Of a stretch of 24,508 nt of DNA, positions 1 to 23,707 are shown in pieces. Position numbers and translations under genes: made by a program. The stretch covers positions 27,877-52,384 of the forward strand of contig FR887325.1 of NCBI GenBank assembly GCA_000436755.1, in the 5' to 3' direction. Source of the DNA: Clostridium sp. CAG:253. Its GTDB lineage: Bacteria > Bacillota > Clostridia > Lachnospirales > Lachnospiraceae. How positions within the stretch are numbered: position 1 is the stretch's first letter; every line of letters begins with the position of its first letter. A model generated the notes under the pieces. The model did not search any database. It was not told where the DNA came from and was given only the letters and a program-made list of their open reading frames with translations.

Positions 1-1446
1 TCTTCCCGACATAAGTGTTATTTTTATATCTGTTATTGAAGAACCCGTCAAAACTCCGGGATGTTCTCTCTCGTCTATATGCGTCATTATAAGACGCTGC
101 CAGTTCTTATCAAGCTTATCTTCACTAGCCTGTGACTCAACAACTATTCCACTGTCAGGCTCTCCTGGTTCAAGTTTTAAATGTACTTCAGCATAATGTC
201 TCAACGGTTCAAAGTGACCAACACCCTCTACCGTATTTGCGATTGTCTCTTTATAGACTATACTTCCCTCTCCAAATTCAACTCTCGTATGAAACCTTTC
301 CCATATAAGATTTTTAAATACGTCAATCTGAACTTCACCCATAATTCCCGTATGAATTTCCTGCAGTTCTTCATTCCACACTACATGCAGACCCGGTTCT
401 TCCTGTTCAAGTGTCTTCATGTCATCATAAAGCTTGTGTATATCGTCATTTTCCTGCGGTGTAACTTTGTATGTCATAACCGGTTCAAGTACAGGCATTT
501 CAGAATTTTTCTCAACACCCAGTCCCATGCCCGGATAAGTCTTTTCAAGTCCTGTTACAGCACATATCTGTCCTGCCTTAACCTCATCAACAGAATTAAA
601 TTTATTTCCGGAATAAATCCTAATCTGATCCGCTTTTTCGTCAAGCTGTTCAATATACATCTTAGCTTTGAGTTCTCCGCCTGTCACTTTAAGATATGTC
701 AGCCTTTTATTTTTATCATCTCTTGATACCTTATATACTTTCGCTCCAAATTCATTAGGATACTCTTTTTTCAATGTATATTTCTCAAGACCGTCAAGAA
801 TTTCTTCTACTCCATCAAGTTTTAATGCCGAGCCAAAATAACAAGGAACTAATTTCCTCTCAAAAATCAGTTTTCTTATATCCTCATCATCTATATTTCC
901 GGAGTCCATATATTTTTCAAGTACATCCTCATCGCACATTGCGATATTCTCAAAAAATTCATCACCGGTTTCACATGTGAAATCTACACATTCACTTCCG
1001 AATCTCTCTATAATACCTGACATTATTTCGTCTTTCTGACAATCACCGATATCCATTTTATTCACAAAAATAAAAACCGGTACATTATATCTTTTCAGTA
1101 ATCTCCATACTGTCTCAGTGTGGCTTTGTATTCCTGCCGGCCCGCTTATCACAAGTATTGCATAGTCAAGTACCTGCAGTGTTCTCTCCATTTCGGCAGA
1201 AAAATCAACATGTCCCGGTGTATCAAGCAAGGCTATGTCAAGGTCTTTCCACCCAAACATAGCCTGCTTAGAAAATATTGTTATTCCTCTGTCTTTCTCC
1301 ATTGAATATGTGTCAAGGAAAGCATCTTTGTGGTCAACCCTTCCAAGTTTCCTTATACTTCCCGAAAGATAAAGCATCGCTTCCGAAAGCGTTGTCTTGC
1401 CCGAATCAACATGGGCAAGCATCGCCAAAACAATATTATTTTTCAA
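1..1446 (-). CDS. Tet(M)-like ribosomal protection GTPase, partial (C-terminus outside window)
   Basis: This is an EF-G/Tet(M)-type translational GTPase, expected to bind the ribosome. The first 482 codons are open to the window edge. Seen: P-loop AHVDSGKT near residue 13, switch motif [20 protein letters not shown] and a GSALK G5-like motif, followed by domains II and III; at the window edge the domain IV stretch [16 protein letters not shown] matches Tet(M)-type proteins. The start is TTG at 1446-1444, chosen because GGAGG lies at 1457-1453 with a 6-base gap and the GTPase domain begins at once. It overlaps the end of the upstream chemoreceptor gene by 11 bases, so the two are probably translationally coupled. 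Many residues differ from classical Tet(M), so tetracycline resistance should not be assumed; a housekeeping or stress role in translation is equally possible. Confidence 0.85.
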
Positions 1447-14148: not shown

Positions 14149-15753
14149 TTATTTCTGAGGTCCTGCTGCTACTAAAGCTTTGCCAGCATCGTTTCCTTCG
14201 TATTTAGCGAAGTTTTTGATAAATCTGTCTGCAAGATCATCAGCTTTCTTTTCCCACTCAGAAACATCTGCATATGTGTCACGAGGATCGAGAATACCTG
14301 TGTCTACGCCATTAAGCTCTGTTGGTACTTCAAAATTGAATACAGGAATAGTCTTTGTTGGAGCATTGTTGATGTCTCCGTTAAGGATAGCATCAATGAT
14401 TCCACGAGTATCTTTGATAGAGATACGTTTTCCTGTTCCGTTCCATCCTGTGTTTACAAGATAAGCCTTAGCTCCGCTCTTCTCCATCTTCTTAACAAGT
14501 TCCTCAGCATATTTTGTTGGATGAAGTTCAAGGAATGCCTGTCCGAAGCAAGCAGAGAATGTAGGTGTTGGCTCTGTGATTCCACGCTCTGTACCTGCAA
14601 GCTTAGCTGTAAATCCTGAAAGGAAGTAGTACTGTGTCTGCTCCGGTGTAAGGATAGATACAGGAGGAAGTACTCCAAATGCATCTGCTGAAAGGAAGAT
14701 AACATTCTTTGCAGCCGGTGCTGAAGAGATAGGACGAACAATGTTTTTGATATGGTCGATTGGGTAAGATACACGAGTGTTCTCTGTTACACTCTTGTCA
14801 TCGAAATCAATCTTTCCGTCTTTGTCAAGTGTAACGTTCTCAAGAAGAGCGTTTCTCTTGATAGCATTGTAAATGTCAGGCTCTGACTCTTTGTCAAGGT
14901 TGATAACCTTAGCGTAGCATCCACCTTCAAAGTTGAATACTCCATTGTCATCCCAGCCGTGCTCATCATCACCGATAAGAAGTCTCTTAGGGTCTGTTGA
15001 GAGTGTTGTCTTACCTGTTCCTGAAAGACCAAAGAAGATTGCTGTATTCTCACCGTTTAAGTCAGTATTTGCTGAACAATGCATAGAAGCCATTCCGTTA
15101 AGTGGAAGGAAGTAGTTCATCATAGAGAACATACCTTTCTTCATCTCTCCGCCATACCATGTGTTGATGATAACCTGTTCTTTGCTTGTGATGTTGAATG
15201 CTACACAAGTCTCTGAATTAAGTCCTAACTCTTTAAAGTTCTCAACTTTTGCTTTTGATGCATTGTAAACTACGAAATCAGGCTCAAAGTTCTCAAGTTC
15301 TTCTGCTGAAGGTTTGATGAACATGTTAGTAACAAAATGTGCCTGCCATGCAACTTCAACGATAAAACGGATAGCCATACGAGTATCTTTATTTGCTCCA
15401 CAGAAAGCATCTACTACGAAAAGCTTCTTGTTGCAAAGCTCTTTCTTAGCAATATCCTTAACAACTGCCCATGTATCTTCTGTCATTGGATGATTGTCGT
15501 TCTTGTACTCGTCTGTTGTCCACCATACAGTGTCTTTTGAGTTCTCATCAACAACGATGTATTTGTCTTTAGGTGAACGACCTGTATAAATACCTGTCAT
15601 TACGTTAACTGCACCGAGTTCACTTTCCTGACCAACTTCATATCCTTCAAGACCTGCTTTTGTCTCTTCCTCATATAATGTCTCATAAGAAGGGTTGTGC
15701 ACGATCTCTGTAGTTCCTGTAATGCCATACTTACTTAAATCAATGTTTGCCAT
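14149..15753 (-). CDS. pckA: phosphoenolpyruvate carboxykinase (ATP)
   Basis: Cytoplasmic enzyme that interconverts oxaloacetate and PEP with ATP/ADP. In fermentative gut Clostridia it often runs in the CO2-fixing direction. Seen: TGRSPKDKY (residues 57-65), [10 protein letters not shown] with the metal-ligand Lys region (201-210), the kinase P-loop [11 protein letters not shown] (242-252) and the metal-binding GDDEHGWD (261-268). The length of 534 residues is typical. The ATG follows AGAGG by 8 bases. It appears to be a single-gene unit with its own promoter about 130 bases upstream and a hairpin downstream. The coding sequence uses more frequent codons than its neighbours, which suggests strong expression. 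Confidence 0.97.
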
Positions 15754-15982: not shown

Positions 15983-17311
15983 CTAAATAAGTCCCCACCC
16001 CTGTCTTATTCCCGGCATTTCCTCCCCCTCTATTCCGACTGCGTATCTTGTCATATACGCAATAAGTTTTTCACCGTACATATTCTCATCATTTCTTCTT
16101 ACAATCCCCCATTCCATTATGCATGCGGCATATCCCGATATTTTAGGTGCCGCAAATGATGTGCCTGTTTTTCTAACATATCCGCCGCCATATCCTGCTG
16201 CCGTTACATCAACTCCATATGCCACAATAAGCGGTACAAGCCGCCCGTCCGCCGTATAGCCTCTGCCTGAAAACGGTGCCATGCTGCCCGCATCCTGATT
16301 GAATGCACCGACAGAAAGCACTTTTCTCGCCGTGGCAGGTATTGTCACGGTTGTATCAGGTGACGGTCTTAAAAAGCCCGTTGACAATCCAATGGCTTCT
16401 ATAGTCGGAAGCCACATATCCACAATTCCGCATTTTATAGTTCCCGTAACAGCAAATTCTATGCTCCATATACCTGAAATCACATAATCTAAGCTATTTC
16501 CCGGTCTTATCGACACTTCCACAAGCTGTTTCGATGTGTACGGTGTCGGCATAGCCAAAACACTCTCTATATTTTCCCTCTGTGAACTCACTGTAACATC
16601 ATTTGAAATATTTATCCGTTTTCCTGACGGTGTATTTAAATATATCTCAAACTCATCCTGAAAATATTTCCATATAAACAACCTTATATTTTTCTCATTA
16701 TCACCTATCGCAAATTCTGTCCTGTTAATATTACTGCTTACATCTGTTCTTACATGATGCCTTGAGTCCCCCTCGTTTCCGGCAGCTACCACGACTATAT
16801 TTTTCCAAATTCCGTTTATATCGGTAATATAATTTTCAAACAATGTATTTCCATCGTGAGCCCCTTCGTTCGTCCCAAAACTCAGATTTATCACAATCGG
16901 CATATTTAATTCTATGGCTTTTCTAAGTGCATAATCAATTCCTTCCATAATATCGATTGTTCTTGTGTAACCCCCGTCACTTCCGCCTGTTCTTTTAAGA
17001 GCAACTGCTATGATTTCACTTTCGTATGCAATCCCACCTGACTGACTGTTTCTGCTTCCTGCCGCTATTGATGCTACCGCTGTTCCGTGACCGCTAAGTC
17101 CGTCACTCGCCGGTACAAGCATTTCCGAAAACCCACGGTTTCCCGTATCCAGTGCACTGTTTATGTCAGAACTGTCATACTGTGCACCGTACCCATATCC
17201 CAAAGGTTCTCTGCCCTCTGCACTCTCACCGTCAATGTTTTGATTCCACAGATAAAGTATTCTTGTTTTTCCGTCTTCATCCCTGAATGCAGGATGAAAA
17301 TAATCAATCCC
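15983..17311 (-). pseudogene. Csp-like S8 subtilisin protease, C-terminal part of an interrupted gene
   Basis: This is the larger piece of a subtilisin-like serine protease, homologous in layout to the Csp germination proteases and relatives of Clostridia. Coding sense runs without a break from 17308 (IDYFHPAFRDEDGKTR) to the stop at 15983, 441 codons. In the rejoined protein the catalytic residues would be Asp109 (in the other piece), His185 (SGHGTAVAS), oxyanion Asn289 (VAAGNEG) and Ser495 (GTSFAAPKISG). As it stands this piece has no good start: a stop lies just upstream, and the first start codon is a TTG at 17203 without a ribosome binding site. It should be silent unless the element between the pieces is removed. 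Confidence 0.9.
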
Positions 17312-18065
17312 CCCTTGTGTTAATTTTTTTATCTGTCAAAATTTTTCTTACTGAACTTTCGCACCATCTTTTTGCATTTATATCAACAATTTTCCCGCTT
17401 TTTAAATATTCTCCCGGCGGATTTATTTTTTTATAATAAAGGATTTCTGCAATTTTTTTTACGCTCTTTCCTTCCCTTTTCATTCTTCTTATAAAACATA
17501 CCACCTCATAAGATTTTTCTTCCTCTTTTAAAATTCTTATCCCGTTTTCACTGACTATCTTAAAACCATAGGGAGCGACACTGCCAAGATAATTTCCCTC
17601 CCTCCGCTTTATTTCTTTTGCATTTTTCACTTTAACTGATATATCCGCCGCATAAAGTTCATTCACAAGATTTTTTAAATTAACACTGAATTCCTTTCTC
17701 CCGTATGTATCATAGAGAGAGTCATATCCGTCAGTTACAGATATAAAACGCACCCCCAAAGCCGGAAATATCTTCTGGATATATTCTCCGACATCAATGT
17801 GGTTTCTGCCAAAACGGGATAAATCCTTTACTATCACGCAATTTACCTTCCCCGCAGCAATATCTTTATACATTCTTTTAAATTCCGGCCTGTCAAAATT
17901 CATTCCGCTTTTTCCGTAATCACTGTAACATTCACTCAACGTTATATCATTATTTACTCTGATATACTCCTTACATATCATAATCTGATTTTTTATCGAC
18001 TGTGCCTTTTTTTCACATCCTTTTACCGAAAGTCTTGCATATATGCCCGCACAATATCTGTTCAC
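17304..18065 (-). CDS. small serine recombinase C, inside the element
   Basis: Site-specific serine recombinase of 253 residues. The resolvase-type catalytic domain has YARLS with the nucleophile Ser near residue 13, DRPEFKRM and VKDLSRFGRN. A compact DNA-binding 'recombinase' domain follows (NYLGSVAPYGF, then RWCESSVRKIL). There is no zinc ribbon or coiled coil, so it is far smaller than typical large serine integrases. The start is GTG 18065, ten bases after AGAGG and 13 bases after the stop of recombinase B. The last codons and the TGA stop lie on the element/host junction. With the circular attP I infer, the same frame would instead end in TAA within the inverted repeat. It probably works with recombinase B. 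Confidence 0.9.
   Translation of the reverse strand: MNRYCAGIYARLSVKGCEKKAQSIKNQIMICKEYIRVNNDITLSECYSDYGKSGMNFDRPEFKRMYKDIAAGKVNCVIVKDLSRFGRNHIDVGEYIQKIFPALGVRFISVTDGYDSLYDTYGRKEFSVNLKNLVNELYAADISVKVKNAKEIKRREGNYLGSVAPYGFKIVSENGIRILKEEEKSYEVVCFIRRMKREGKSVKKIAEILYYKKINPPGEYLKSGKIVDINAKRWCESSVRKILTDKKINTRGD
17305..17323. other. element junction, low-coordinate end (attachment site)
   Basis: CAATCCCCCC (17305-17314) followed by the inverted repeat arm TTGTGTTAA (17315-17323). On the minus strand this reads as repeat arm, six G, then protease codons. It also supplies the stop codon of recombinase C. Confidence 0.8.
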
Positions 18066-19092
18066 AACAATTTTACCTCTATTTTTTATTTACCTTCATA
18101 TACAATTCATTTTCTACGACAGCCAGTTCTTTCTTTTCACATACAACCCATTTTTCTCTGTCCTCTTTCACGGTTTTTCCTAATTTATAACTTATTTTTC
18201 TGTTTTTTCCCTGAGAGAGAACACCTGCATATATTTCATTACTCAGTATTCTGCTTACTGTCTGCGGATACCATTTTCTCTTTTTCTCCGATAATTCAGT
18301 ATTTTTTTGAAATGGTGTCCTGAATTTTTCTTTATTTTTTTTCCTAAGTTCAAATGGTGTCAGAACTTTTTTGTCATTTAAACAATCAGCAATCTTTTTA
18401 AGTGAATATCCCTGACTTCTCAAATAAAATATATCATTTATTGTGTCTGTCACTTCCTTGTCAGGTATAAGCTTATTCTTATCTTTGCATGATTTTTTAT
18501 ATCCATATGGAGCAAATGCCCCGACATAATTTCCCTTTCTCATGCTTGCATAAAGCTGTGACCTAACTTTCACTGATATATCCCTCGAATATTCATCATT
18601 TATTATACTTTTCATCTGAATATACATCTGCGTCTGAAAAATATCTGTATCATTTTTAGTGTCATAAACATCTGCAATTGATATAAGTCTTATTTTTCTT
18701 TTTCTCAAATAATATTTCAGAAATCTGCCAACCTCTATATAATCCCTGCCAATTCTTGATAAATCTTTTACGACTATGCAGTTTATATAATTATCTTCTA
18801 TATCATATATCATTCTTTTAAACTCCGGTCTGTCAAAATTCTGACCGCTGTACCCATCATCAATGTAAATATCACAAATCGAAATACTGTCCCCGTTTAC
18901 TTTATTATAATTTTCTATATATTCATTTATTATTTTGCTCTGACTGTAAATGCTTTCACTATAAAAGCCAGTATTCTCTTTATCCTTTCTGCTAAGTCTT
19001 ATATAAATTGCAGCCCTGTACACATCCTTTCTATTTATATTTCCAAAACTGTTATTTCTAAAGTTTCCGATATTTTTCTTAACACAATCCCC
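17312..19092 (-). mobile_element. 1.78 kb serine-recombinase element inserted in the S8 protease gene
   Basis: The element is bounded by inverted repeats TTGTGTTAA (17315-17323) and TTAACACAA (19079-19087), each next to a C/G tract shared with the target. It holds only recombinases B and C. If a circular attP has 9-base arms around GGGGGGGA and crossover is at the central GG, the two junctions observed (six G at the low end, five at the high end on the minus strand) imply a target with four G. That target is exactly what rejoins the protease frame as D-S-G-I-D-Y. The insertion is therefore precise and site-specific, next to the codon of the catalytic Asp. Excision itself is inferred. Confidence 0.85.
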
Positions 19093-19422
19093 CGAATCTA
19101 TAATCCCCATTATAACCCCTTTTCCGCTGAGCTCATTTTCAGTTATGCGGTTCTGCATAATCTCCACTTTTTCCTGTGTATCTTTTGGGGCATTTTTTAA
19201 AATTTGATTCATTTTTCCGGTATCTGATTTATCTGCCTTTGTTGGATAAACTCTCCCTGGCTCTTCAATATAAATTATCTCCGGTACATTTCTTAATTCA
19301 TCGAGCAATTCATATGCAATGTCAACTATCGCATACTGTGCAAGCAGTTCTGATACTTTTACACTTTCGTCAATCTCTCTCACCCTGTCAAGACTTCCAT
19401 AATATTTGACTATTACCTTCAC
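18079..19422 (-). CDS. serine recombinase B fused in frame to the protease propeptide
   Basis: The 447-residue ORF is a chimera. Residues 1-111 are the propeptide and catalytic-Asp motif of the S8 protease (…VIMGIIDSG). Residues 112-133 come from the element's end, and from 134 it is a serine recombinase. The catalytic domain has YIRLS (Ser144), DRPEFKRM and VKDLSRIGRD, followed by a recombinase DNA-binding domain (NYVGAFAPYGY, then KWYPQTVSRIL). It lacks a zinc ribbon. The recombinase's own start is probably GTG 19023 (314 residues), which aligns with the start of recombinase C, although its AGAAAGGA box is very close. The GTG at 19422 has GGGAGG eight bases upstream and is the protease's start. 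Integration thus places recombinase B under protease expression signals. Confidence 0.88.
   Translation of the reverse strand: MKVIVKYYGSLDRVREIDESVKVSELLAQYAIVDIAYELLDELRNVPEIIYIEEPGRVYPTKADKSDTGKMNQILKNAPKDTQEKVEIMQNRITENELSGKGVIMGIIDSGDCVKKNIGNFRNNSFGNINRKDVYRAAIYIRLSRKDKENTGFYSESIYSQSKIINEYIENYNKVNGDSISICDIYIDDGYSGQNFDRPEFKRMIYDIEDNYINCIVVKDLSRIGRDYIEVGRFLKYYLRKRKIRLISIADVYDTKNDTDIFQTQMYIQMKSIINDEYSRDISVKVRSQLYASMRKGNYVGAFAPYGYKKSCKDKNKLIPDKEVTDTINDIFYLRSQGYSLKKIADCLNDKKVLTPFELRKKNKEKFRTPFQKNTELSEKKRKWYPQTVSRILSNEIYAGVLSQGKNRKISYKLGKTVKEDREKWVVCEKKELAVVENELYMKVNKK
19079..19094. other. element junction, high-coordinate end (attachment site)
   Basis: Inverted repeat arm TTAACACAA (19079-19087), then T and five C (19088-19093), then protease sequence. 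CAATCCCCC (19085-19093) is also found at the other junction (17305-17313). Confidence 0.8.
19093..19422 (-). pseudogene. Csp-like S8 protease, N-terminal part (propeptide and catalytic Asp)
   Basis: Codons 1-110 of the interrupted protease. The region LLAQYAIVDIAYELLDELRN followed by VPEIIYIEEPGRVY matches the propeptide layout of Csp-type subtilisins (an 'EI.YIE.P.R' block before the protease core). GKGVIMGIIDSG then begins the core, with Asp109 as the first member of the catalytic triad. Start GTG 19422 with GGGAGG; it lies 15 bases after the stop of recombinase A, so the two may share a transcript. Joined to 17311-15983 it gives 552 residues, the usual size for the family. Whether this is CspA, CspB or CspC-like, or a non-spore paralogue, cannot be said. 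Confidence 0.88.
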
Positions 19423-19437: not shown

Positions 19438-20631
19438 TCATCTCTTAAAACGCCAAAATATAACTATATTTTCGTTCTCGCCGACAAATATCTTCTTTAC
19501 AAATATATTCAGCAACATTTCTCTTTCCACATTCGTACTTAAATTATTTTGATTTTTTTTAACGTACTCACAAATATTACTTTCTTTTCCACTGCTTTTT
19601 GTTTCCTCTGTCAAAAAAATATCCAGTCTGTCAAAAAAAAGCTGATATAACCTCTCGGTTTTTATCAGCTTTTTTTCTCTTCCGGTACAGTTTCTGCAGC
19701 AGAGCCATCCCTTTTTTGCCCTATCCGTTACAAGTGCCTTTTTACATATCATACATTTTGTAAGTCCATGAAAAATATGTCTTGGCTCCTTCCTTTTGTG
19801 ATTTTTTCCATAATACTTTATTATATCCTCTGAGAGCATTGTTTTGTCTACTATAGCAATGTCATTCTCTGTGTCTCTGCTTATCTTCCACTGCTCCGGG
19901 TATTGTTTAGTCCTTTTTTTAGGCAGAACAATTTCATTTTCATATCTGTGCCAGACATGATACCCGAGATATGACGGTTCATGAAGTATTCTCCACACCA
20001 TCGATACAGTCATATCAAATGTATGTGCAATCTTTTCGTATGTAATGCCGTCACATCTCATTTTATACATCATTCTTATATCTTCCGCTTTTCTTTCGTC
20101 TATCACTATTTTCCCGTTTTCCGCCTTATAACCATACGGAAGTTTTGCAACAGCATATTCACCAGCATTTTTCTTTGCCTCAAGTGCACTTCTCACCTTT
20201 CTTGAAATATCACTGCAGTAATACTCGTTAAATAATGTTTTAAACGGATGTATAATGCCCGCATCCTCTGCGCTGTCACTGTCGTAACTGTCCAATATGG
20301 CTATAAATCTTACCTGTTTTAAAGGAAAGTATTTTTCACGTAATTCTGATACAAGCAGATGTTCCCTGCTAAGTCTTGAAAAATCTTTTACTATGACAAT
20401 ATGTGCCTGTTTAAGTTCCACACATGCAAGCATTTTCATAAATGCCGGTCTTTTCCTGTCCGTTCCGCTAAATCCTTCATCCACAAATTCACATATGCTT
20501 TCATTGTCTGAACATAAATCATTATCACTGACATAACTTCTCAAAAGAAACATCTGGTTCTCGATAGTATTGCTTACCGAATTTTTTCTTTTATCTTTTT
20601 TGGATATTCTCGCATATAACGCTATCACGCT
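19438..20631 (-). CDS. serine recombinase A with zinc ribbon, outside the element
   Basis: Site-specific recombinase of 397 residues with the full set of domains. The catalytic domain has YARIS near the start, DRKRPAFMKM and VKDFSRLSRE. A recombinase domain follows (EYAVAKLPYGY, then TVSMVWRIL), then a zinc ribbon with CMIC and CCRNC at about residues 300-325, and a C-terminal helical tail. The ORF is open to a TTG at 20643, but GTG 20631 has GGAG six bases upstream and matches family starts, so I prefer it. It begins about 40 bases after the lipoprotein gene and ends 15 bases before the protease start. It is outside the inverted repeats that bound the element, so it would stay after excision. 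Confidence 0.9.
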   Translation of the reverse strand, partial: SVIALYARISKKDKRKNSVSNTIENQMFLLRSYVSDNDLCSDNESICEFVDEGFSGTDRKRPAFMKMLACVELKQAHIVIVKDFSRLSREHLLVSELREKYFPLKQVRFIAILDSYDSDSAEDAGIIHPFKTLFNEYYCSDISRKVRSALEAKKNAGEYAVAKLPYGYKAENGKIVIDERKAEDIRMMYKMRCDGITYEKIAHTFDMTVSMVWRILHEPSYLGYHVWHRYENEIVLPKKRTKQYPEQWKISRDTENDIAIVDKTMLSEDIIKYYGKNHKRKEPRHIFHGLTKCMICKKALVTDRAKKGWLCCRNCTGREKKLIKTERLYQLFFDRLDIFLTEETKSSGKESNICEYVKKNQNNLSTNVEREMLLNIFVKKIFVGENENIVIFWRFKR

Positions 20632-20670
20632 TTTCTCCAACAAATTTTTTCTTATCTCATACTATGCAGC

Positions 20671-21267
20671 CTAGTTTGTACTATTTCCGCTGCCTGAAGT
20701 TTCCTTATCAGTGTTTTTTGCATTTTTTCCTGTCTCTTCTCTTATAAGCACTTTGGAAACATTATCTCCGTCTAATGCAATTTCTATTATGCATCCTTTT
20801 TTTATATCTGAAACTGATGCATCTGTTTTTTCCTGATTCATTCCAGCCTTTTGAACAATAACATTATCACCTAACGTAACAGTTGAAGTTTCTCCTGTGC
20901 TCTTAAACCCTGGCATACCACCTTTTGCATCAGGTGCTCCGCTTCCATGCGGCTTCTGTGGCTTCTCACCATTCTTTGCGTCAGGTGCTCCACTTCCATG
21001 CGGCTTCTGTGGTTGATTTTCATCTCTTGATAAAACCTCATAAGTAATTTTGCCGTCATCGCTTACGCTCTTAACTTTTCCATATATAGTATATTCGCTT
21101 ACTTCTGCACTTGTATAACTGTTTGAATTATCTGAATTTGAAGATGATGCAGCATCGGATGAAGCAGTATTAGAACTGCTGTCTGAACTGTTTTTTTCTG
21201 AGCATCCTGTAATCATTGATACAGTAATCACAAGCCCCATCACTACAGCTAAAAATCTTTTTTTCAT
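20671..21267 (-). CDS. lipoprotein with internal repeat, function unknown
   Basis: Predicted secreted, membrane-anchored lipoprotein of 198 residues. The N-terminus is a signal peptide ending in the lipobox MITGC (Cys22). A Ser/Asn-rich linker follows, then a small beta-rich domain (YTIYGKVKSVSDDGKITYEV … TVTLGDNVIVQKAG … DIKKGCIIEIALDG). Related arrangements, with a Pro/Gly-rich insert between the two halves of an OB-like domain, occur in other Firmicutes lipoproteins of unknown role. The insert here is two copies of QKPHGSGAPDAK. The ribosome binding site (AGGGA) is weak. A tandem 11-base repeat lies upstream and may be a regulator site. The next gene is recombinase A. Confidence 0.8.
   Translation of the reverse strand: MKKRFLAVVMGLVITVSMITGCSEKNSSDSSSNTASSDAASSSNSDNSNSYTSAEVSEYTIYGKVKSVSDDGKITYEVLSRDENQPQKPHGSGAPDAKNGEKPQKPHGSGAPDAKGGMPGFKSTGETSTVTLGDNVIVQKAGMNQEKTDASVSDIKKGCIIEIALDGDNVSKVLIREETGKNAKNTDKETSGSGNSTN
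20924..21012. repeat. 51-base-period direct repeat inside the lipoprotein gene
   Basis: Two 38-base copies (20924-20961 and 20975-21012) with two mismatches. The period is 17 codons, so gain or loss of a copy keeps the frame. They encode the repeated QKPHGSGAPDAK segment. Confidence 0.85.
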
Positions 21268-22876: not shown

Positions 22877-23707
22877 TTAAGATGCATTGCATGCACAATA
22901 CTCCAATCTCAATTTATCAGTGAGCAGTGCTATAAATTCTGAATTTGTCGGCTTGCTTTTCTTTGAATTGATTGTGATAAATATTTCCTCCAGCATCTCT
23001 CTGTTTCCCCTCCTGAATGCAACTTCTATTGCATGTCTTATCGTTCTCTCGACACTGCTTGATGTTGTATTATATTTCTTAGCTATCGCCGGATATAAAC
23101 ACTTTGTTATGAAATGCAGCATATTCTTATCATAAAATGCAAGCATTATCCCCTCTCTGATATACTGGTATCCTTTAATGTGAGCCGGAATACCAATCTC
23201 TAACAAAAGATTTGTCACATCCACTTCAAGATTTACGGTTCGGACATCATCGGATGATTTTACCGCCTCATACTCTTTTACATTTTTTAACAAACTGCCT
23301 CTTGATAAATGCCCGTTTTCTCTGATATATCTCTTATTCACAAGCTGCAAAACCCTTGCTATAAGCATCTGATTAGATACAGGCTTCATCATATAATAAT
23401 CAGCACCGTATTTTATTGCCTGCTCAACAAGATTTTCCATTCTCAATGCTGTCTGAATAATGAAAATCGGCTTTCTACCTGACATATTGGAACATTCTTC
23501 TAATATTCCAATGCCGTCTAACCCTGATAGTATCATATCCATCACAATAACATCTGCCTTTCCATCACTAACTGCTCTAAGAACCTTGTTACCATCACCT
23601 GTCGACAATATCACTTCCATTCCTTTTGATTCCATTGAAAGCTGTTTGCTTTCCCTATCCTGTACATTACTGTCTGCTATAATTACTTTTAACTGCGTAT
23701 CTTTCAT
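22877..23707 (-). CDS. spo0A: sporulation master regulator Spo0A
   Basis: Response regulator that starts sporulation when phosphorylated. The receiver domain (residues 1-120) has the acidic pocket at Asp12, phospho-acceptor Asp57 (IVMDMILSGLDG), Thr86 and Lys108 (MMKPVS). The C-terminal domain is the distinctive Spo0A effector: VTNLLLEIGIPAHIKGYQYI at about 164-183, then YPAIAKKYNTTSSSVERTIRHAIE at about 205-228, which is the DNA-recognition helix-turn-helix. The length of 276 residues is normal. The ATG follows AAGGAG by 6 bases. The usual neighbour spoIVB is absent; instead a response regulator gene lies upstream and citrate synthase downstream. Its presence indicates a spore-forming lineage. 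Confidence 0.97.
   Translation of the reverse strand: MKDTQLKVIIADSNVQDRESKQLSMESKGMEVILSTGDGNKVLRAVSDGKADVIVMDMILSGLDGIGILEECSNMSGRKPIFIIQTALRMENLVEQAIKYGADYYMMKPVSNQMLIARVLQLVNKRYIRENGHLSRGSLLKNVKEYEAVKSSDDVRTVNLEVDVTNLLLEIGIPAHIKGYQYIREGIMLAFYDKNMLHFITKCLYPAIAKKYNTTSSSVERTIRHAIEVAFRRGNREMLEEIFITINSKKSKPTNSEFIALLTDKLRLEYCACNAS

What the first reader, a model, noticed from the sequence alone, without database searches (positions are those of the whole stretch)
15983..19422. A Csp-like protease gene interrupted by a precisely removable 1.78 kb recombinase element
Seen: the two protease pieces are complementary and together make one 552-codon S8 protease. They are separated at the DSG|IDY motif by DNA with 9-base terminal inverted repeats. 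The G counts at the junctions (five and six) fit a four-G attB and seven-G attP with crossover at a central GG. The rejoined target restores TCG GGG ATT GAT in frame. Known: serine recombinases cross over at a central dinucleotide, and in Bacillus and Clostridium some sporulation genes (sigK and others) carry intervening elements removed during sporulation. Inferred: this element may be a developmental switch for a germination-type protease, here in a genome with spo0A a few kb away.
Basis: partly seen in the sequence, partly recalled or inferred. Interest (0 to 1): 0.93.

Follow-up and report, generated by a model that had tools for sequence, protein, structure and literature searches.

The report
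Self-cutting insert in spore germination gene
In a group of gut bacteria a gene for a spore-germination protease is split by a 1.8-kb piece of DNA that carries its own cutting enzymes, and the split has been kept in good order over long evolution, which suggests that the bacteria cut the piece out when they make spores.

Summary
On the minus strand a Csp-type germination protease gene (111 + 441 codons) is split at the catalytic DSG|IDY motif by a 1,781-bp element holding two serine recombinases. Eubacterium sp. MSJ-13 and Butyribacter intestini carry the same interruption, with intact recombinases and purifying selection on both protease halves although synonymous sites are near saturation. 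In the window and B. intestini the conserved first ~35 codons of the C-half follow no start codon, so they seem readable only from a rejoined gene. Recombinase B has no conserved start of its own: it is an in-frame extension of the protease N-half (15 aligned sequences, linkers of 7-70 residues). A third recombinase lies just upstream, behind a sigma-E-like promoter candidate. And larger elements (8 to 26 kb where measured) with related recombinases sit at the same codon in other genomes of the family; this one looks like a stripped-down relative whose recombinases lack coiled coils. Best explanation: a domesticated excision cassette, switched on with csp in the sporulating mother cell, that removes itself and rebuilds csp. 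Excision was not observed. New variant of a known kind (skin, gin, yin elements).

The parts
19090..19422 (-). csp N-half: GTG start, CspB-type prodomain and the catalytic Asp motif up to DSG (111 codons)
   Evidence: PF18425 hit; dN/dS 0.09-0.21 among three species
18079..19089 (-). recombinase SR-B, in-frame continuation of the csp N-half; resolvase and recombinase domains, no zinc ribbon, no coiled coil
   Evidence: dN/dS 0.19-0.24
17304..18065 (-). recombinase SR-C; catalytic domain plus most of the recombinase domain, ends at attR
   Evidence: PF00239; alignment to rec2; AlphaFold2 model mean pLDDT 82.3, matches serine integrase 9dxd over 254 columns, TM-score 0.76 by query length
15983..17311 (-). 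csp C-half (441 codons after the Gly codon): GHGTAV His and GTSFAAP Ser motifs, no ATG, GTG or TTG in frame between the upstream stop and a TTG 35 codons in
   Evidence: PF00082, CspB structures, dN/dS 0.06-0.09, starts
19078..19098 (-). attL; crossover GG at 19092-19091
   Evidence: first 20 nt identical in MSJ-13 and B. intestini
17300..17323 (-). attR; crossover GG at 17311-17310; inner arm TTAACACAA, inverted repeat of the attL arm
19438..20643 (-). recombinase SR-A, outside the element, 15 bp upstream of csp; zinc-ribbon cysteines, no coiled coil
   Evidence: same place in MSJ-13 and B. intestini
20659..20684 (-). sigma-E-like promoter candidate ATA-N15-CATAGTAT upstream of SR-A
   Evidence: 1 match, 0.12 expected; same spacing in the same place in L001 and L002; pattern taken from the alignment, so post hoc
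22877..23707 (-). spo0A (context)
   Evidence: PF08769 E 6.4e-40

Best explanation
A domesticated, excision-only gene-intervening cassette in a Csp germination protease gene. Shown in sequence: csp is split at the Gly codon of its catalytic Asp motif by a 1.78-kb element bounded by attL and attR; the first element gene (SR-B) continues the reading frame of the csp N-half in each of the 15 aligned copies; SR-C follows, and SR-A precedes csp in what looks like one operon behind a sigma-E-like promoter candidate. Inferred: in the mother cell of a sporulating cell the operon is transcribed, the CspN-SR-B fusion together with SR-C and probably SR-A assembles on attL and attR, and crosses over at the GG. 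The 1.78-kb circle is lost, csp is rebuilt in frame, and SR-B is cut off from its start codon, so the switch turns itself off. The mother cell dies, so the forespore germline keeps the element. All three recombinases lack the coiled coil that hinders attL x attR recombination in full-size integrases, so a directionality factor should not be needed and reinsertion elsewhere should be lost.
For: Same interruption in three species without decay; dS 1.03 or more with low dN/dS on both csp halves and on SR-A, SR-B and SR-C. First 35 codons of the C-half conserved 28-30 of 35, with 15-19 of 20-27 differences at third positions, although no start codon precedes them in frame in the window or B. intestini. 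attL core identical. Fusion frame kept in 15 aligned sequences with ten different linker lengths; in MSJ-13 the linker has no ATG, GTG or TTG at all. The nine listed proteins that match the C-half at 73-99% identity over at least 84% of it all lack the prodomain, i.e. come from split genes. Related larger elements share att arms, the codon and recombinases of the same three groups. csp is a sigma-E operon in C. difficile, with an ATA -35 motif and ATA-N16-CATATATA mapped at spoIIID (passages of PMC3789822); an ATA-N15-CATANTAT site lies upstream of SR-A in all three species. LI integrase without its coiled coil recombines attL x attR and attB x attP alike, at low efficiency, with no intermolecular reaction detected (passages of PMC10754689 and PMC5814800).
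Against: No excised junction or circle was seen: no intact csp of this clade among the 120 listed of 2,478 relatives and no attP in viral contigs, which is also what a never-excised element would give. phiC31 integrase without its coiled coil is inactive. The csp stem branch of this clade is long (1.25 changes per column), so its function may have shifted. SpoIVA was not found in the fragmentary MSJ-13 genome. The CspN-SR-B fusion could not be modelled with confidence (mean pLDDT 48.4). In-frame start codons do occur in the SR-B linker of the window (one GTG) and B. intestini (two TTG, one GTG). The MSJ-13 C-half has an upstream GTG inside SR-C and an ATG 28 codons in. The promoter pattern was chosen after seeing the alignment.
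Confidence: 0.76

Rival explanations
1. A fixed split gene: the element no longer moves and csp is either dead or works as two separately made chains.
For: No excised form is seen among listed relatives; the element keeps only truncated recombinases; the G310 csp C-half stands without an N-half or a recombinase hit within 18.5 kb.
Against: Both halves and all three recombinases are under purifying selection at near-saturated dS; in the window and B. intestini conserved C-half codons lie upstream of any in-frame start and after in-frame stops; the attL core stays identical. A dead gene would decay; a two-chain protease would need a start. MSJ-13, which has possible starts, is less clear.
Confidence: 0.12
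2. Phase variation rather than development: the element leaves at random in growing cells, giving germination-proficient and deficient variants.
For: LI integrase without a coiled coil reacts both ways intramolecularly; yin in C. botulinum is excised in part of the population at all time points.
Against: The element has no room for a replication gene beside its two recombinase ORFs, so loss would be final, yet no listed close relative is intact; the operon has a sigma-E-like promoter candidate; vegetative promoters were not scanned for.
Confidence: 0.08
3. Independent recent insertions in each species, csp having been intact for most of its history, so that purifying selection says nothing about the split state.
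For: Interruption is recurrent on the csp tree (at least 7-8 changes) and larger related elements use the same site.
Against: The three species share derived features: fusion to SR-B, the same truncations and SR-A upstream. The element genes are about as diverged at synonymous sites as csp (dS 1.03 or more). SR-B, SR-C and csp each put the window nearer to MSJ-13 than to B. intestini (SH-aLRT 88, 97, 82); SR-A does not resolve it, though its path lengths agree. This fits one old insertion.
Confidence: 0.04

Closest known systems
gin element in gerE, Bacillus cereus ATCC10987 (PMC5595907: abstract, sections 5 and 11)
   Same: Non-phage element in a sporulation gene, three serine recombinases, short shared core, inverted-repeat att, excised at mid-sporulation
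   Different: gin has 31 genes and needs the directionality factor GirX; here 1.8 kb, two recombinases inside and one outside, one of them fused to the target gene, no directionality gene found; target is csp
skin elements in sigK (B. subtilis, C. difficile; PMC5025042 passages, PMC10747680 passages)
   Same: Serine recombinase excises an element from a mother-cell gene; spoIVCA of B. subtilis also lies after the 5' gene half in similar orientation
   Different: Prophage-like; in C. difficile the recombinase is constitutive and needs the directionality factor CD1234
yin element in yabG, C. botulinum (PMC10747680 passages)
   Same: Sits in a gene for a sporulation protease, one that processes CspBA in C. 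difficile; recombinase lies after the 5' gene half in similar orientation
   Different: Prophage-like, reported as unique to one strain, with its own putative directionality factor
Larger csp-site elements found here (G003, G004, G007, G014, G020, G021, G223, G278, G366)
   Same: Same codon, similar att arms, recombinases of the same three groups
   Different: About 8.4, 15.8 and 26 kb where both halves lie on one contig; recombinases with zinc ribbon and coiled coil in the two genomes aligned (G014, G223); csp N-half runs into a stop, no fusion, in the 7 with attL seen
fdxN excision recombinase XisF and SCC cassette recombinases CcrA/CcrB
   Same: Serine recombinases; developmental excision (XisF) and paired recombinases (Ccr) are recalled
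   Different: Scores far below the curated cut-offs

Membership tests
Sporulation gene-intervening (skin-like) elements | Interrupts a sporulation or germination gene | tested here: met
   Csp prodomain and S8 domain, CspB structures; function in this organism not tested
Sporulation gene-intervening (skin-like) elements | Flanked by att sites with a shared core, predicted rejoining restores the frame | tested here: met
   frame by reading
Sporulation gene-intervening (skin-like) elements | Carries its site-specific recombinase | tested here: met
Sporulation gene-intervening (skin-like) elements | Excised as a circle, gene reconstituted | not testable with these tools
   No reads or cultures; no attP in viral contigs
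Sporulation gene-intervening (skin-like) elements | Excision restricted to sporulation (mother cell) | tested here: inconclusive
   sigma-E-like site in three species, post hoc pattern
Sporulation gene-intervening (skin-like) elements | Recombination directionality factor (known for skinCd, SPbeta, gin; not identified for skinBs, PMC5025042 passage) | tested here: not met
   No further sense-strand ORF of 60 aa or more in the element; shorter ORFs were not listed
Csp germination proteases | CspB prodomain and S8 catalytic triad | tested here: met
   Asp motif in the N-half, His and Ser motifs in the C-half read from the translations
Csp germination proteases | Needed for germination (cleaves pro-SleC) | not tested
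   Known for CspB of C. perfringens and C. difficile (PMC3789822 passage)
Large serine recombinases | Catalytic domain with Y-x-R-x-S and the DLSR/DFSR motif | tested here: met
   the motifs' meaning is recalled
Large serine recombinases | Recombinase domain, zinc ribbon and coiled coil | tested here: not met
   SR-B stops before the zinc ribbon, SR-C inside the recombinase domain, SR-A has zinc-ribbon cysteines but no coiled coil; they derive from the family but are truncated

The most novel reading that the evidence does not exclude
A self-erasing recombinase: the integrase of an ancient csp element has lost its own start codon and is made only as a C-terminal extension of the protein it interrupts, so its expression is bound to the developmental expression of its target and is ended by its own reaction. 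With two partner recombinases, all stripped of coiled coils, it forms a directionality-factor-free, three-recombinase excision machine that acts like a DNA-level intron and has been inherited vertically through several species.
Probability: 0.5. Interest if true: 0.92.

Novelty: new variant of a known kind. Interest (0 to 1): 0.85.

Why it matters
If true, germination capacity in a group of gut spore-formers depends on a programmed DNA cut in csp, a gene for which the listings of my paper searches showed no intervening element. It also shows how a mobile element can be pared down to a resident switch: start codon borrowed from the target gene, directionality module lost, cargo lost, att site kept. 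Larger relatives at the same codon (8 of 28 genomes of the genus-level set hold an interrupted copy, the window's two close relatives included) give a series from mobile element to domesticated cassette in which this can be tested, and suggest compact excision-only recombinases as tools.

Tried and rejected
Rejected: two-chain protease (no usable start in the C-half of the window and B. intestini); dead relic (dN/dS); phage origin of the small element (only two sense ORFs, no phage gene); SR-B translated from a private start: MSJ-13 has no ATG, GTG or TTG in the linker, the window has one GTG and B. intestini two TTG and one GTG, none in common, so a private start in single species is not excluded; the database proteins P0257, P0258 and P0259 are listed with starts downstream of the csp start, P0258 inside the linker.

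SR-A homologues elsewhere in the genus-level set (12 of 28 genomes have a match) were looked at for a neighbouring csp: besides MSJ-13 and B. intestini, G012 has an intact csp directly after it; in G013 an intact csp lies about 2 kb further on, behind a polymerase-like ORF; in the other eight no csp N-half was hit in the fetched flanks of up to about 1.5 kb.

First dN/dS run for window SR-B was mis-framed, as was the SR-B query; both were redone. The AlphaFold2 model of the fusion was too poor to use. attP pattern in viral contigs: 0 matches.

Dropped rows: G310 (L073) has a C-half with no N-half and no recombinase hit within 18.5 kb and was left out of the csp tree; L004 and L005 were also left out. 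P0244 and P0256 (fragment, chimera) were left out of the fusion alignment, 14 of the 16 listed prodomain-resolvase clusters being used. Two recombinase ORFs (L034 at 11636, L035 at 16128) were left out of the tree. In the tree L047/L077 are one gene, L024/L038 are identical, and L071, L072, L074 were chosen because their frames were short, so its share of interrupted genes is not a frequency. In the family search (397 genomes, 260 with a match at E 1e-40, list cut off) I followed up 10 places and 3 were interrupted. Both trees are quick trees with SH-aLRT only.

Papers fetched: PMC5595907 (abstract, sections 5 and 11); passages only of PMC10747680, PMC5025042, PMC3789822, PMC10754689, PMC5814800, PMC5553647, PMC11170972, PMC12880746; all others as search listings.
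Full report
What is there. Read on the minus strand, the window holds, in order: a sigma-E-like promoter candidate (20684-20659), recombinase SR-A (20643-19438), a csp N-half that runs in frame into recombinase SR-B (19422-18079), SR-C (18065-17304) and a csp C-half (17311-15983). The N-half has the CspB prodomain and ends with the catalytic DSG; the C-half has the GHGTAV and GTSFAAP motifs. The nearest solved structures are germination proteases, among them CspB 4i0w. attL and attR share GGGGGATTG and carry 9-bp inverted arms; their centre puts the crossover on the GG of the glycine codon and the element at 1,781 bp.

It is old and cared for. No genome is held for the window, but a scan of species genomes gave five loci, two of them close: Eubacterium sp. 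MSJ-13 (81% identity) and Butyribacter intestini TF01-11 (76%). Both have the same order of genes, the same split and open frames. The first 20 nt of attL are identical in the three; attR is identical in the window and MSJ-13 but for one synonymous base, and has three changes in the inner arm in B. intestini that keep the spacing. Pairwise dS is 1.03 or more, in some pairs saturated, yet dN/dS is 0.06-0.09 for the C-half, 0.09-0.21 for the N-half, 0.19-0.24 for SR-B, 0.17-0.20 for SR-A and 0.15 for the one SR-C pair that is not saturated. The six codons DSGDCV across attL are identical at every base, tied with three other runs for the longest in the operon.

The C-half can hardly be made alone. 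In the window an in-frame stop lies shortly upstream and the first start is a TTG 35 codons in; in B. intestini there is none in 60 codons; MSJ-13 has an ATG 28 codons in, and its frame is also open upstream with a GTG inside SR-C. Yet the first 35 codons are conserved 28-30 of 35, with differences mostly in third positions. Rejoining the gene is the simplest way to read them.

SR-B has no conserved start of its own. A protein search with the fused ORF gave 3,518 hits, 120 listed; 16 of the 120 carry the Csp prodomain together with a resolvase domain. Fourteen of them plus the window align with an invariant DSG and Val-Lys at the junction and with linkers of 7 to 70 residues in ten different lengths, all in frame; one, P0241, is nearly identical to the window. 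Prodomain-less hits P0257 and P0259 begin inside the same frame. The search was made with the fused ORF and so favours fused copies; the three DNA loci are an independent check, and the MSJ-13 linker holds no ATG, GTG or TTG.

Where it comes from. In the genus-level set of 28 genomes, 27 have a csp match and 8 hold a copy interrupted at exactly this codon: G001, G002, G003, G004, G007, G014, G020, G021; G003 also has an intact copy, and its interrupted one is identical to that of G004 over the stretch compared, so contamination is possible. Three more were found in the family set (G223, G278, G366). Outside the window clade the elements are larger: 8.4 kb in G007, about 15.8 kb in G366 and about 26 kb in G021, where both halves lie on one contig. 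Their att arms resemble the window's: attL GGGGAGCGTGTTATTATA or variants in 7 of 7 seen, attR TTTAACA or TTGACA, then two bases, then AGAG before GG. G014, G223 and G366 show three full-length recombinase frames; in G007 and G021 frames look partly broken, and the others are cut by contig ends. In a quick tree SR-B falls in a broad group with rec1 (93), SR-C with rec2 (89) and SR-A with rec3 (98); the first two groups also hold other database recombinases, so descent from a csp-site element is my reading, not shown. SR-B and SR-C have lost the zinc ribbon and coiled coil that rec1 and rec2 of G014 and G223 keep, and SR-A lacks the coiled coil of their rec3. The csp N-half of the larger elements runs into a stop soon after attL in 7 of 7, so the fusion is special to the small one. 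On the csp tree interruption needs at least 7-8 changes, so the site has been used, or vacated, again and again.

How it probably works. csp is a sigma-E (mother cell) operon in C. difficile, whose sigma-E promoters have an ATA -35 motif (passages of PMC3789822). An ATA-N15-CATANTAT site lies upstream of SR-A in all three species (1 match each; 0.12, 0.02 and 0.14 expected by chance), though I built the pattern from their alignment. B. intestini has SpoIVA; it was not found in the MSJ-13 draft. I infer that the operon is switched on in the mother cell, the recombinases cut at attL and attR, csp is rebuilt and SR-B is severed from its start. Deleting the coiled coil lets LI integrase recombine attL x attR and attB x attP alike, weakly, with no intermolecular reaction detected, whereas it kills phiC31 integrase (passages of PMC10754689 and PMC5814800). 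So an excision-only enzyme without a directionality factor is plausible but not shown. The roles of the three recombinases are unknown; the SR-C model (mean pLDDT 82.3) fits serine integrases over catalytic and DNA-binding parts.

What is missing. No tool here gave reads. The nine listed C-half relatives with 73-99% identity over at least 84% of the query all lack the prodomain; of the other 111 listed, 93 have it, beginning with P0130 at 52% identity. That fits a germline that is always interrupted, but also an element that never leaves; the database is clustered at 90% and only 120 of 2,478 hits were listed, so a joined form could be hidden.

Known or new. It belongs with the sporulation gene-intervening elements skin, gin and yin in place and anatomy, but excision is untested and no directionality factor was found. 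The listings of six literature searches showed no report of an intervening element in csp or of a recombinase translated from its target gene; the library lacks most subscription papers. I rate it a new variant of a known kind.

Noticed in passing
L002:6896-7106: B. intestini has about 200 bp between SR-B and SR-C with long inverted ends, like a small MITE, and its SR-C ends before attR (seen by eye).
   Followed up: no
L039:2494-5353 (G012): An SR-A-type recombinase lies directly upstream of an intact csp; possibly a healed descendant or an independent association.
   Followed up: partly
L086 and L031 (G013), L089 (G011): SR-A-type genes in G013 and G011 are followed by a similar polymerase-like (DinB-type, by eye) gene; in G013 an intact csp lies beyond it.
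   Followed up: partly
L073 (G310): A csp C-half with an attR-like stretch before it but no N-half and no recombinase hit within 18.5 kb.
   Followed up: partly
L084, L085, L087, L088, L090-L092: SR-A-type recombinases of about 330-450 aa stand alone beside unrelated genes in the genus-level set; their targets are unknown.
   Followed up: partly
window 20671-21267: Lipoprotein-like gene with PHGSGAPDAK-type repeats whose number differs among species, just upstream of SR-A.
   Followed up: no
window 14149-15753: The pckA-like neighbour shows far fewer synonymous changes (dS 0.26) than csp C-half or spo0A (above 2) between the window and B. intestini, perhaps codon bias.
   Followed up: no
window 1-1446: EF-G-like GTPase resembling the ribosomal protection family, cut by the window end (by eye).
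   Followed up: no
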